Source of the DNA: Methanococcus maripaludis C5
GTDB lineage: Archaea > AGJL01 > Methanococci > Methanococcales > Methanococcaceae
Length of the DNA: 64,000 bases
Reading direction: 5' to 3'
Assembly (NCBI RefSeq): GCF_000016125.1
Contig: NC_009135.1
Coordinates: 744,001-808,000, forward strand
Shown: positions 1 through 4,186 of the stretch, piece by piece
Position numbering within the stretch: position 1 is the first letter of the stretch
Layout: each line of letters opens with the position of its first letter
Made by a program: the position numbers and the translations under genes
The notes under the pieces: model-generated
What the model was told of the DNA's origin: nothing
Database searches by the model: none
What the model saw: only the letters and a program-made list of their open reading frames with translations

Positions 1-906
1 ACAAGCATTGAAACTCGATATAAGCGGAACTATACGCACTTTCCGCTCTTAACTAAAAGAATAACTTGCAAAATAACAAGCATTGAAACTTTTTTTATAC
101 GTTTAGTAACAGGGTTAATTCTGTTTACTAAAAGAATAACTTGCAAAATAACAAGCATTGAAACTTTAATTCCCATTCATGGTTTGGATCTGGAATAAAT
201 GCTAAAAGAATAACTTGCAAAATAACAAGCATTGAAACTTTTGTTCGTGTCTTTTCTTCTCAATAATTCTTTTAAACTAAAAGAATAACTTGCAAAATAA
301 CAAGCATTGAAACTTTTTTTATTGTAATCGGTTATACTGTTGTATTCTGTCTAAAAGAATAACTTGCAAAATAACAAGCATTGAAACACAATTTAGATGT
401 TATAGAGTTTTTAAAACAGAATAAACTAAAAGAATAACTTGCAAAATAACAAGCATTGAAACTACAGAATTTACGTGATTTTAATTATGGTATATATTCT
501 AAAAGAATAACTTGCAAAATAACAAGCATTGAAACTATTGTCGATTTTATTTCGCTTAACTCTGTCGGATTATCTAAAAGAATAACTTGCAAAATAACAA
601 GCATTGAAACTGATGGAGTCAAAAGGTAAGACTGTTAAATTTCCGGCTAAAAGAATAACTTGCAAAATAACAAGCATTGAAACACCTTGAAAATATAACA
701 TATGAGCAAAAAATTGAAATCTAAAAGAATAACTTGCAAAATAACAAGCATTGAAACCCACCGGCGGAGGGCTCTAAAACGAGGGTACTCGAATACTAAA
801 AGAATAACTTGCAAAATAACAAGCATTGAAACCTGATGAAACGAGCGAAACAAACAATAAAAAATCAAGCTAAAAGAATAACTTGCAAAATAACAAGCAT
901 TGAAAC
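1..906 (+). CRISPR. CRISPR array, leader-distal part (12 full repeats plus one cut by the window edge)
   Basis: A 37-nt repeat (begins CTAAAAGAATAACTTG, ends CAAGCATTGAAAC) starts at 53, 128, 202, 277, 351, 426, 499, 574, 647, 721, 796 and 870, each copy identical; a partial copy occupies 1-14. The twelve spacers are 36-38 nt and all different. The repeat end ATTGAAAC is the typical 8-nt 5' tag of type I-B crRNAs, so the array is read on the + strand, the leader and older array lie left of the window, and the degenerate copy at 1726 is the trailing end. No cas genes are in the window. Minus-strand open frames across the array are artefacts of the repeat. Confidence 0.98.
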
Positions 907-1164
907 CGGGGCAAAGAGCAAGTTTAATTTCTAAAACTCTTTTATCTTCTTCGATAGTTCATGTTTTAAAAAAGCAGGGCAGGGATAACGATTATAAAAT
1001 ATACAGACAGATTAACAAAGATGTTGAGCAAAAAATAAGAGAATTTACCAATCAATACTGCATAGCAATTATTAAACAGGGAATTCTACTTGAATTTTTT
1101 AATGATCTGCAAGTTTTATATAATCTGATGATATATTGTATATCATACTGATATAATCTATATC
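907..1164 (+). other. Interrupted last spacer / gene remnant before the toxin-antitoxin pair
   Basis: After the last intact repeat there is no new repeat for about 820 bp. The first 245 bp stay open in one frame (83 codons, from a TTG inside the repeat at 900), with a hydrophilic middle and no recognised family. The frame has no Shine-Dalgarno site and its end runs through the promoter of the next gene, so it looks like a remnant of the DNA that brought in the toxin-antitoxin genes rather than a working gene. Left and right ends of the original spacer could not be identified. Confidence 0.4.
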
Positions 1165-1172
1165 ATGGTGAT
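1115..1172 (+). promoter_or_regulatory. Promoter, two operators and SD of the toxin-antitoxin operon
   Basis: A consensus archaeal TATA box TTTATATA lies at 1115-1122, placing the start of transcription near 1145. Two perfect inverted repeats follow: ATGATATA-TTG-TATATCAT (1128-1146) and TGATATA-ATC-TATATCA (1149-1165), with centres 20 bp apart (about two helical turns). The SD GGTGAT at 1167-1172 serves the ATG at 1177. Twin operators overlapping the start site are what autorepression by a ribbon-helix-helix antitoxin would look like. Confidence 0.75.
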
Positions 1173-1176
1173 ACAT

Positions 1177-1425
1177 ATGGTTCATGTTCAAGTTGATTTA
1201 AGCGATGATTCAAACAGGATTATTGAGATATTCAAGGCTCAACATTCAATCCCTAAAAAATCTATCGCAATAGATATGTTTATTTCACAATTTGCGAGTT
1301 ATGGTAAAGAAGCTTTAGAATATAACCCCGCATTTGTAAAAGAAACAATAGAACATAGTAAAGGTAAGGATTTTATAGATATAACGGATAAAAAATCCAG
1401 AAGAAAACATTTGGGATTAGAATGA
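1177..1425 (+). CDS. RelB-like / DUF2683-type antitoxin
   Basis: An 82-aa protein beginning MVHVQVDLSDDSN, which matches the opening of the archaeal DUF2683 family, small ribbon-helix-helix proteins usually paired with RelE toxins (family call from memory). The N-terminal beta strand and two helices would bind DNA; the charged C-terminal tail (residues 45-82) would bind and neutralise the toxin. An in-frame ATG at 1165 exists, but the SD GGTGAT at 1167-1172 and the family's usual N-terminus favour 1177. The stop overlaps the toxin start by 4 bp (ATGA), the normal arrangement of a type II module. Twin operators upstream suggest autoregulation. Confidence 0.75.
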   Translation: MVHVQVDLSDDSNRIIEIFKAQHSIPKKSIAIDMFISQFASYGKEALEYNPAFVKETIEHSKGKDFIDITDKKSRRKHLGLE

Positions 1426-1724
1426 GTGATATGAAATTAGCAATTCGTGATAAACGGGTTCAGAAAAAACTCCAAAAAATTTTTAAAAAAGATAAAGTTC
1501 ATGCAGATGCTATTGACTCTGCATTTGATAAAATTCTTGAATATCCTAATCGCGGTATTCCAATGACTGGTGAACTCGCCGGTTTTAGGCATTTGCATGT
1601 TTATGATTCTTTTGTTATACTTTATTTCGTTGATGAAGTTGAAAAAATAATATATATCGACAACTACGGCCACCATGATGAAATGTATTCATGGAACGAC
1701 AAGATGAAAAAATCAAAAAAATAA
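1422..1724 (+). CDS. RelE/ParE-family toxin
   Basis: A 100-aa protein with the RelE/ParE fold pattern: helical N-terminus (KLAIRDKRVQKKLQKIF), a central helix, then strands with the hallmark end IIYIDNYGHHDEMY near residues 76-89, like the VxxxGHRxxVY end of RelE mRNA interferases. RelE toxins cut mRNA on the ribosome; ParE relatives poison gyrase, and the sequence alone does not settle which. It is translationally coupled to the antitoxin. Its TAA stop (1722-1724) ends one base before the degenerate CRISPR repeat at 1726, so the module sits inside the array. The frame is intact, so the toxin is probably functional. Confidence 0.8.
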   Translation: MSDMKLAIRDKRVQKKLQKIFKKDKVHADAIDSAFDKILEYPNRGIPMTGELAGFRHLHVYDSFVILYFVDEVEKIIYIDNYGHHDEMYSWNDKMKKSKK

Positions 1725-1725
1725 C

Positions 1726-1762
1726 CTAAAAGAATAACTTGCAAAATAACAAGCATTACAAT
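1726..1762 (+). repeat. Degenerate terminal CRISPR repeat
   Basis: The first 32 nt are identical to the array repeat; the last five (ACAAT instead of GAAAC) have diverged, destroying the 5' tag. A decayed final repeat is typical of the leader-distal end and fixes the array's orientation. It is separated from its nearest neighbour by 819 bp holding the toxin-antitoxin genes. Confidence 0.92.
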
Positions 1763-2260: not shown

Positions 2261-2364
2261 CCGCAAAATTTATATATTACTGTCATCATACAACGATGGC
2301 AAACTCAAAATTCACCATATGCTACCGTGGTTACCACTTTGATGTAAAGTTAGTATGGTGTTAA
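2261..2364 (+). other. Strong promoter with a short transcript or 22-aa open frame
   Basis: CGCAAAATTTATATATT (2263-2279) is one of the best BRE/TATA matches in the window. About 25 bp downstream an ATG at 2296 opens a 22-codon frame (MANSKFTICYRGY..., stop 2362-2364) that would be leaderless. The same stretch also folds: CACCATA (2313-2319) pairs with TATGGTG (2354-2360), with GTGG-TTA-CCAC inside. It could be a small RNA, a micro-peptide or the head of a gene cut by the DUF4041 insertion. Nothing else is visible between 2050 and 2473. Confidence 0.3.
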
Positions 2365-2379
2365 TATTTATATAATTAA

Positions 2380-2411
2380 TCTCGAGTTTAAAAAATTTAA
2401 AATGGAAAAAA
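2380..2411 (+). repeat. 32-bp direct repeat, left copy
   Basis: A 32-bp sequence (starts TCTCGAGTTTAAAAAA, ends AATGGAAAAAA) is repeated exactly at 4155-4186. The two copies bracket the broken DUF4041/GIY-YIG gene, so the block between them may have arrived or been duplicated as a unit. Confidence 0.9.
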
Positions 2412-2473
2412 TGACGAAACATTTGAATTTTTAGAAAATAGGCATTTACAAAAATAAAAAAATAATCATGAAA

Positions 2474-4037
2474 TTAAGCTTCTGACTCAAATTTTTCCTT
2501 GTTTTGAATTAATTCATTATTCATTGCAAGCGTTTGACGATACTGCTCAGCTTCAGCAATTTTTGTAAATTCAACGACCTTGTTGTGATTTTCATTAACT
2601 ACTTTTTCAACCTCATGGAGGTTTACCTTAAAGAATTCTTTTTTATTATTGATTTTATTTACCTGTCTTTCTCGGAAATAATTATGAAGTGCAGTTTCGA
2701 GTTTTGGTGCATCTTCACTAAACACCATCGCATGAACATCAAATGGGAATGGAACCGAAGCCCCACTAAGTTCCCTTACCCGGTCAAATGGTTCAAGCCG
2801 TCGAGTCATTCCAATTTTATATACGTCATCCCCCAATGAACCGATATTTGAAATAATATAAACATATCCTGCCCTAGTATTTTGTTCCCTATTGTATACA
2901 TCTTCCTTATCTTTTTCGAGAAGTTTAATTTTTTCTTCGAGTTCCTTTAATTTTTCTTCGTATTTCAATTTTTGAGCTTCCGTTGCATTTTCCATTTTTG
3001 CCTTTAGTCCTTCAACAGCTTGTTTAAAATGAGTTTCTTCTTTTTCAATTTTGGCTTTCATAGTTTCTATTTCTTTTAAAACCCTTGCTTCTTCCCTCAT
3101 TTGTTCTCTTATCCGTGCCTGTTCTTCCTGTTCTTCACGTTTTTTCAGTTCATACTCATATGCGAGATACAATTCTTCTAATTTTAAATTAAGATATTGT
3201 GGAGCAATGGAAATCCTGTTTCTGTTTCCAAGTTTGTTTAAAATTTCGTAAGAAGTCCTAATTCTTTTTTCACTTGCGTCAATATTGTTATATTTGACTT
3301 TGAAAATATTTGCTTCGCATTCATTATTAAAAGAACGGACTATGAGTTTTATGTTATCGTTGGTCATTTTTTGACCTTCTTTTTTACTGCCATTCACGGT
3401 CCAGTCGGGATAATAGTTAACAGCTTCTTTAGATTTAACCATTTCTTTTTGCCGAGCTCTTATTAGAGTAATCTGATTTTTATATGACTCAGACGATGCT
3501 AAATTGTATCTTGGAGAATAAAATCCAAAAGATTGCATTAAAATTTCTTCTTCAAAACAATTATTTTCTTTTCGAGGTCTTTGATTGTATTCAATATGTC
3601 ATTTTTTTGTTTTTTTAAATTTTCTATTTCCAAGTCTGCTTTTTTCCGGAATTCCGTTATTTCAGACTCGATTATTGCTATTTGTTCCTTTTTTCCCGTT
3701 CCATATTTTTAATATTCATTTTAATTTTAGAAATCTTGTTTTGTTTATCGTATTCCAAATTTTCTAAAAATACGTTCACTTCAGTTTCTTTTTCTTTTTT
3801 TAGTTCTTCGAGATTTTCAATTTCTTTTTTTAAATCGAGGTATTTGATCTGTTCGAGATCCGCTTCTTTCTTTTTTAGCTCTCGATTTTCATTTTTTAAG
3901 TCTAAAGAGTTTTTATTCAAAAGTTCGTTTTCCTTTGTTAATTTACCAATATTTTGGTTTAAACGTTCGTTTTCTTTTTTTAGTTCTTCAATTTCTTTTT
4001 TAAATTTTCCAGTGTTAAATATATCGCCAATTCCCAC
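2474..4037 (-). pseudogene. DUF4041 / T5orf172 (GIY-YIG) protein, broken by two frameshifts
   Basis: Three successive frames rebuild one protein of about 520 aa. Residues 1-119 (4037-3678) are coiled coil starting MGIGDIFNTGKF; a middle piece (about 3687-3546) continues KEQIAIIESEITEFRK; the last 354 codons (3538-2474) hold the DUF4041 core (QSFGFYSPRYN, WTVNGSKKEGQKMT, LIVRSFNNECEA), a second coiled coil and a C-terminal GIY-YIG/T5orf172 domain (GYVYIISN, VYKIGMTRR, KEFFKV). Both breaks fit loss of one base in a homopolymer: an A-run near 3688-3695 and a T-run near 3554-3557. Such proteins occur in phage and genomic islands, and GIY-YIG domains are nucleases. The C-terminal part could still be made from the ATG at 3538. 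Homopolymer sequencing errors are the main alternative. Confidence 0.85.
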
Positions 4038-4154
4038 AAAATCACCAGATTCTAATTATTTTGTATGAATCATAATTTTGTTAAGTAGAATATAAAAAAT
4101 TGACGGGTTGTTGGCCGAAGAAACGTCTTATAAAATTAGAATTAGTTGAAAGAT

Positions 4155-4186
4155 TCTCGAGTTTAAAAAATTTAAAATGGAAAAAA
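4155..4186 (+). repeat. 32-bp direct repeat, right copy
   Basis: Exact copy of 2380-2411. It lies just beyond the 3' end of the minus-strand gene at 4189-4662 and about 120 bp upstream of the broken DUF4041 gene. Confidence 0.9.

What the first reader, a model, noticed from the sequence alone, without database searches (positions are those of the whole stretch)
870..1762. Toxin-antitoxin operon sitting inside the CRISPR array
The last identical repeat ends at 906 and the degenerate terminal repeat starts at 1726; between them, instead of a 37-nt spacer, lie 819 bp with a RelB/RelE-like pair reading the same way as the array. The toxin's stop codon ends one base before the terminal repeat. RelBE-type modules near CRISPR loci are known, and CreTA-type RNA modules guard Cas genes, but a protein module bounded by repeats of the array itself is unusual. 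It could stabilise the array (loss of the array by repeat recombination also loses the antitoxin, killing the cell), or the array may have grown next to it.
Basis: partly seen in the sequence, partly recalled or inferred. Interest (0 to 1): 0.78.

Follow-up and report, generated by a model that had tools for sequence, protein, structure and literature searches.

The report
Toxin–antitoxin virus fragment between CRISPR repeats
In a methanogenic archaeon, the last slot of a CRISPR memory array holds 819 letters instead of about 37: the tail of a virus DNA-packaging gene plus a complete, conserved toxin–antitoxin pair, so a gene-carrying piece of mobile DNA is lodged exactly where a short virus memory should be.

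Summary
Repeat 28 (870-906) and the terminal repeat (1726-1762, 34/37 identical) bound an 819-bp interval; the other 27 spacers are 34-40 nt. The interval holds an intact RelE-fold toxin (1422-1724) and DUF2683 antitoxin (1177-1425) with their own TATA box and paired operators.

The toxin–antitoxin homology (92.5% DNA identity to a relative, probably M. vannielii) starts there and runs to the base before the terminal repeat. The relative's copy lies elsewhere with no repeat beside it. So the spacer slot holds foreign mobile-element DNA with a toxin–antitoxin cargo, not a module the array grew beside.

Array, complete I-B cas set and toxin–antitoxin lie on a 17.2-kb integrase-bearing island with 17-bp end repeats and an empty site in a relative.

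Capture route: oversized spacer or recombination with an invading element; not decided. Array stabilisation is untested and covers only deletions using the terminal repeat. Precedent: an 899-bp plasmid fragment between repeats in Sulfolobus solfataricus. New variant of a known kind.

The parts
870..906 (+). last canonical CRISPR repeat (repeat 28 of 29)
   Evidence: identical to the 27 upstream copies; Rfam CRISPR-DR62
907..1725 (+). 819-bp insert filling the spacer slot
   Evidence: other 27 spacers are 34-40 nt; edges coincide with the repeat borders
907..1103 (+). 3' end of a virus DNA-packaging (HerA/FtsK-like) ATPase gene, C-terminal ~65 codons, in frame and gap-free
   Evidence: 55% identity to residues 127-191 of the 191-aa ATPase in a provirus-like region of G006, E 6e-19; coding-type substitutions 21/13/35 by codon position
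1114..1123 (+). TATA-box-like promoter TTTTATATAA of the toxin-antitoxin operon
   Evidence: read from sequence; identical over TTTTATATA in the G003 copy
1129..1145 (+). operator-like palindrome TGATATA-N3-TATATCA, copy 1
   Evidence: arms identical and middle changed in the G003 copy
1149..1165 (+). operator-like palindrome TGATATA-N3-TATATCA, copy 2
   Evidence: as copy 1
1177..1425 (+). antitoxin gene, DUF2683, 82 aa (GGTGAT ribosome site 1167-1172; longer start at 1165 possible)
   Evidence: Pfam PF10884 E 1.6e-8; 95% aa identity to G003, dN 0.023 / dS 0.405
1422..1724 (+). RelE/ParE-superfamily toxin gene, 100 aa
   Evidence: TIGR02385 36.3 bits over cut-off 27.9; AlphaFold2 model pLDDT 82, best solved matches RelE toxins; dN 0.033 / dS 0.283 against G003
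1726..1762 (+). terminal, 3'-degenerate CRISPR repeat (repeat 29)
   Evidence: 34/37 identical, hairpin kept, Rfam 59 bits
2279..2295 (+). right copy of the 17-bp direct repeat ACTGTCATCATACAACG bounding the 17.2-kb CRISPR-Cas island (left copy outside the window at C1:729099)
   Evidence: single copy at the uninterrupted site in G002

Best explanation
The 819 bp are a piece of foreign mobile-element DNA sitting exactly in the last spacer slot of a subtype I-B CRISPR array: the 3' end of a virus packaging-ATPase gene joined to a self-contained type II toxin-antitoxin operon. SHOWN: virus ATPase homology starts at the border of repeat 28 and ends at the gene's last codon; toxin-antitoxin homology starts there and ends at the border of the terminal repeat; the pair is intact and conserved. 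INFERRED: the segment came in one piece from an invading element in which the pair sat just behind the ATPase gene, and was lodged between repeats by an array-specific event, most likely capture by Cas1-Cas2(-Cas4) of an oversized fragment, or else recombination between the array and the invader. INFERRED: once in, the pair expresses from its own promoter, autoregulates through the two palindromes, and persists because losing it frees a stable mRNA-cutting toxin; it thereby also penalises loss of the integrase-bearing island that carries the CRISPR-Cas system. Cas6b should cut any array read-through transcript in the two flanking repeats, separating toxin-antitoxin mRNA from crRNA precursors.
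For: ATPase tail at the repeat border. It is the end of a full gene in other genomes (191-238 aa open frames in 7 other genomes of 36 in the class), next to a tyrosine integrase and putative structural genes in G006. The fragment still shows coding-type divergence (dN/dS about 0.12, no gap, no stop). The toxin-antitoxin match to G003 covers exactly window 1101-1725 with no repeat beside the G003 copy. Relatives of the pair lie in integrase-bearing elements in G004 and G005. Operators and promoter conserved. Purifying selection. RelE fold. Complete I-B cas set with cas1, cas2, cas4 and cas6b on the same island. Control: the related G003 array has 100 spacers all 32-41 nt and a degenerate terminal repeat after a normal spacer. 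Precedent for mobile-element DNA between repeats: PMC4390879.
Against: No donor was found in which ATPase and toxin-antitoxin are adjacent: none of the ATPase loci in relatives has the pair beside it, and scans of viral, phage, plasmid and genome collections found none. Cas1-Cas2 normally measures spacers of a fixed size, and 819 bp is about 22 times too long. No protospacer motif could be inferred because no spacer of this array has a confident match. Toxicity and expression were not tested.
Confidence: 0.66

Rival explanations
1. Recombination route: an ordinary ~37-nt spacer from the ATPase gene was already at 907-943. A virus or provirus with the matching protospacer recombined into the array through that short homology, and later deletion removed all but the ATPase tail and the toxin-antitoxin pair.
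For: The first ~37 bp after repeat 28 are ATPase sequence, as such a spacer would be. Recombination and deletion of spacers between repeats is documented in Sulfolobus.
Against: The deletion would have had to end exactly at the border of the terminal repeat, one base after the toxin stop. No remnant of a duplicated spacer is seen on the right side.
Confidence: 0.3
2. Two-step origin: a ~194-bp virus fragment came to lie between the repeats first, and a mobile 625-bp toxin-antitoxin cassette later inserted between it and the terminal repeat.
For: The cassette shared with G003 has sharp edges (window 1101 and 1725) while flanks differ completely.
Against: No target-site duplication or transposase. 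The left edge falls at the last codon of the ATPase gene, which a random insertion into a fragment would not predict.
Confidence: 0.2
3. Array guardian: the pair was selected in this position because losing the array through repeat recombination also loses the antitoxin and kills the cell.
For: Both genes conserved; flanking repeats share 32 exact bases and could recombine; toxin-antitoxin pairs in cas cassettes were proposed to maintain CRISPR-Cas (PMC4390879).
Against: Only pairs using the terminal repeat (28 of 406) would remove it; spacers can be lost among the other 28 repeats with no penalty; cas genes are not protected except by island loss. No second case of this arrangement was found in the genomes searched.
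Confidence: 0.12
4. Assembly or annotation artefact.
For: Repeat arrays are prone to misassembly.
Against: Largest contig of a 2-contig, 99.85% complete genome; both junctions run into unique sequence, and insert composition (29.9% GC in both halves) is uniform.
Confidence: 0.03

Closest known systems
899-bp pNOB8-like plasmid fragment between two repeats in CRISPR locus F of Sulfolobus solfataricus (described in PMC4390879, section 4.5)
   Same: a piece of mobile-element DNA of similar length lodged between two array repeats in an archaeon
   Different: the review says nothing of an intact toxin-antitoxin pair in that fragment. It notes the insert equals roughly a whole number of repeat-spacer units; here the fit is 10.6 units.
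Type II toxin-antitoxin modules of the RelBE/ParDE superfamily
   Same: RelE fold, small antitoxin gene first, 4-bp overlap, paired operator palindromes
   Different: antitoxin is DUF2683 rather than a classical RelB; location inside a CRISPR array
vapBC pairs inside cas gene cassettes of Sulfolobales (PMC4390879, section 8)
   Same: toxin-antitoxin pair genetically tied to CRISPR-Cas, proposed to help maintain it
   Different: there among cas genes, here between repeats and arriving with virus DNA
CreTA modules (known to me, no CreTA data used here)
   Same: toxin-antitoxin unit linked to a CRISPR-Cas locus
   Different: CreTA uses an RNA toxin and a crRNA-like antitoxin that needs Cascade; this pair is two proteins with its own promoter
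Methanococcus voltae provirus (MVV) / TKV4-like members of the STIV group (PMC5894146)
   Same: source family proposed for the ATPase tail; G006 carries an integrase, ATPase and structural-like genes in one region
   Different: only the last third of one gene is present here

Membership tests
Subtype I-B CRISPR array | identical direct repeats with size-constrained spacers beside a I-B cas operon | tested here: met
   28 identical repeats plus a degenerate last one, 27 spacers 34-40 nt; Cas6b, Cas8b, Cas7, Cas5, Cas3, Cas1, Cas2, Cas4
Ordinary CRISPR spacer | length within the array's range | tested here: not met
   819 bp against 34-40 nt, 32-41 in the related G003 array
Ordinary CRISPR spacer | DNA from a mobile element, flush with repeats on both sides | tested here: met
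   ATPase homology begins at the left repeat border, toxin-antitoxin homology ends at the right one
Ordinary CRISPR spacer | protospacer flanked by the system's PAM | not testable with these tools
   no donor sequence and no confident protospacer for any other spacer
RelE/ParE type II toxin-antitoxin | toxin of the RelE/ParE fold | tested here: met
   Pfam and NCBIfam over cut-off; fold match to RelE structures, TM up to 0.82
RelE/ParE type II toxin-antitoxin | cognate antitoxin upstream in one operon with autoregulatory operators | tested here: met
   DUF2683 gene overlapping by 4 bp, two conserved palindromes; repression itself not tested
RelE/ParE type II toxin-antitoxin | toxin arrests growth, antitoxin neutralises it | not tested
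   needs expression in a laboratory strain
MVV/TKV4-like virus ATPase | homology to the packaging ATPase of integrated viruses | tested here: met
   55% identity over 65 residues to the G006 gene, itself phrog_2666 head and packaging E 1.5e-22
MVV/TKV4-like virus ATPase | complete gene with Walker motifs next to a double jelly-roll capsid gene | tested here: not met
   only the C-terminal third present; capsid identity of the G006 neighbour not confirmed by sequence search
CreTA | toxin and antitoxin are RNAs, antitoxin crRNA-like | tested here: not met
   two conserved protein-coding genes with dN/dS about 0.06 and 0.12

The most novel reading that the evidence does not exclude
The CRISPR adaptation machinery captured, in one step, an 819-bp gene-carrying segment of a virus genome as a giant 'spacer', so that a working toxin-antitoxin operon was inherited through the immune memory and now behaves as an addiction element for the CRISPR-bearing island.
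Probability: 0.3. Interest if true: 0.78.

Novelty: new variant of a known kind. Interest (0 to 1): 0.55.

Why it matters
If the insert is an oversized spacer, spacer acquisition can on rare occasions move whole genes into an array, a route of gene capture and a failure mode of the size ruler that can be tested in a genetically tractable methanogen. Whatever the route, a two-protein addiction module between repeats makes a long-standing guess, that toxin–antitoxin pairs help cells keep CRISPR-Cas, testable at one defined locus by a single deletion. The locus also shows a complete I-B system travelling on an integrase-bearing island.

Tried and rejected
Chance repeat at 1726: rejected (32 exact bases, 0 matches to the reversed control pattern). 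Independent second array or virus-borne mini-array with the same repeat: no other copy in the genome, in 6 congeners, in 22 family genomes or in IMG/VR. Array grown beside a resident module: rejected (terminal repeat lies beyond; G003 copy has no repeat). Insert as a whole number of repeat-spacer units (idea in PMC4390879): 10.6 units, rejected. Empty-site comparison for the pair in G003: the toxin-side flank match in G002 is a shared promoter-like sequence and not informative. Scans of plasmids, phages, viral and genome contigs for the pair or the ATPase gave no relative; very near records may be left out of these collections. Spacer matches to G006, G003, the 8.3-kb contig and public phages/plasmids: only short AT-rich matches. 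tRNA at the island edge: none. Rfam gave only CRISPR repeats.

Full report
WHAT IS THERE. The window lies at C1:744001-808000 of a 1.78-Mb chromosome with one 8.3-kb extra contig. The array runs from C1:742879 to 745762 with 29 repeats of 37 nt. Twenty-eight are identical; the last (window 1726-1762) differs only in its final five bases (GAAAC to ACAAT). Intervals 1-27 are 34-40 nt and interval 28 is 819. The last copy is a real repeat: it scores 59.0 bits with Rfam CRISPR-DR62, as the others do, keeps the small hairpin, and no reversed-pattern control match occurs in the genome. The related array in G003 (size fits M. vannielii, from memory) has 101 repeats, 100 spacers of 32-41 nt, and also ends in a 3'-degenerate repeat, but directly after a normal spacer. 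So this array has a normal end with an abnormal last interval.

THE TOXIN-ANTITOXIN PAIR. Antitoxin 1177-1425 (DUF2683) and toxin 1422-1724 overlap by 4 bp. The toxin passes the curated cut-offs of ParE_toxin and RelE_StbE; its predicted fold (pLDDT 82) matches RelE toxins best (M. tuberculosis RelE, T. thermophilus RelE, E. coli RelE). A TATA-like box (1114-1123), two perfect TGATATA-N3-TATATCA palindromes (1129-1145, 1149-1165) and a ribosome site precede the start. In the G003 copy the palindrome arms are identical while the three middle bases differ, as expected of operators. Divergence from G003 is mostly synonymous (dN/dS 0.06 and 0.12). DNA identity is 92.5% against about 81% for the neighbouring sucD-topA region, which suggests horizontal transfer.

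Window 906/909-1103 aligns, without gap or stop, to residues 126/127-191 of a 191-aa P-loop ATPase encoded in G006 (55% identity, E 6e-19). That ATPase matches phage head-and-packaging family phrog_2666 (E 1.5e-22) and HerA/Zot-type families, and sits with a tyrosine integrase and other virus-like genes. Full-length relatives occur in other genomes of the class (seven genomes with matches besides this one); only here is it a fragment beside a repeat. The fragment begins within two bases of the repeat border and ends at the gene's last codon. Toxin–antitoxin homology with G003 begins at 1101, in the last ATPase codon, and ends at 1725, the base before the terminal repeat. Codon-position changes in the fragment (21/13/35) are those of a functional gene, so little decay has followed capture. 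Toxin homologues (41-43%) lie in integrase-bearing elements in G004 and G005, so this kind of pair travels on mobile elements in the genus.

SURROUNDINGS. Compared with G002, the array, the complete I-B cas set (cas6b, cas3, cas5, cas7, cas8b, cas1, cas2, cas4), a tyrosine recombinase and several unknown genes form one 17.2-kb insertion, C1:729099 to window 2279, flanked by a 17-bp direct repeat that is single at the uninterrupted site. The pair lies near the right end of this island.

HOW IT MOST LIKELY CAME ABOUT AND WORKS. Flush junctions with both repeats are what integration by the adaptation machinery produces; a random insertion into an existing spacer should leave spacer remnants on both sides, and none are recognisable. 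I therefore favour capture of one foreign segment (ATPase tail plus pair) in the spacer slot, by Cas1-Cas2 taking an oversized fragment or by recombination between a matching spacer and the invader. I cannot separate these without a donor sequence or PAM; searches found neither. The pair has what it needs to run alone, so array transcription is not required. Read-through RNA should be cut by Cas6b in both flanking repeats (inference from the kept hairpin and cleavage-side sequence). Persistence is explained by addiction; protection of the array is at best partial, since 378 of 406 repeat pairs can recombine without touching it, while excision of the island would always remove it.

WHAT IS KNOWN. 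A review of Sulfolobales CRISPR (PMC4390879) reports an 899-bp fragment of a pNOB8-like plasmid between two repeats in S. solfataricus locus F, calls such irregularities very rare, and notes vapBC pairs among cas genes with a proposed maintenance role. Hence a new variant of a known kind: mobile DNA between repeats, here with an intact, conserved toxin–antitoxin operon. I found no report of this in the held literature, but that library lacks most subscription papers and the crRNA study of this organism that I recall.

LIMITS. One genome per species is held, so strain-level empty sites could not be checked. The donor was not found. Toxicity, expression and stability effects are untested. Species names are from memory of genome sizes.

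Noticed in passing
L005:100-17296 (C1:729099-746295), right end at window 2279-2295: The whole I-B CRISPR-Cas locus is a 17.2-kb island with a tyrosine recombinase at its left end and a 17-bp direct repeat at both ends; G002 shows the uninterrupted site and G001 a variant of it.
   Followed up: partly
window 2402-4162: A second insertion relative to G002, carrying a T5orf172/DUF4041 gene (2474-3538, minus strand) with a very strong match to phage family phrog_1847 (E 7e-152).
   Followed up: partly
L070:5249-5357 (G003:C1:188249-188357): A decayed 109-bp remnant of the same virus ATPase tail (73% DNA identity) lies in an intergenic region of G003, 2 kb from topA.
   Followed up: partly
window 15-52 and 833-869, with partners at C1:743718-743754 and C1:743792-743828: Two pairs of spacers in the array are near-copies of each other with differing ends, as if taken from related variants of the same invader.
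   Followed up: no
L135:6749-14116 (G003 array, minus strand): G003 has a 101-repeat array with a related but distinct 37-nt repeat that shares the 3' end ACAAGCATTGAAAC.
   Followed up: partly
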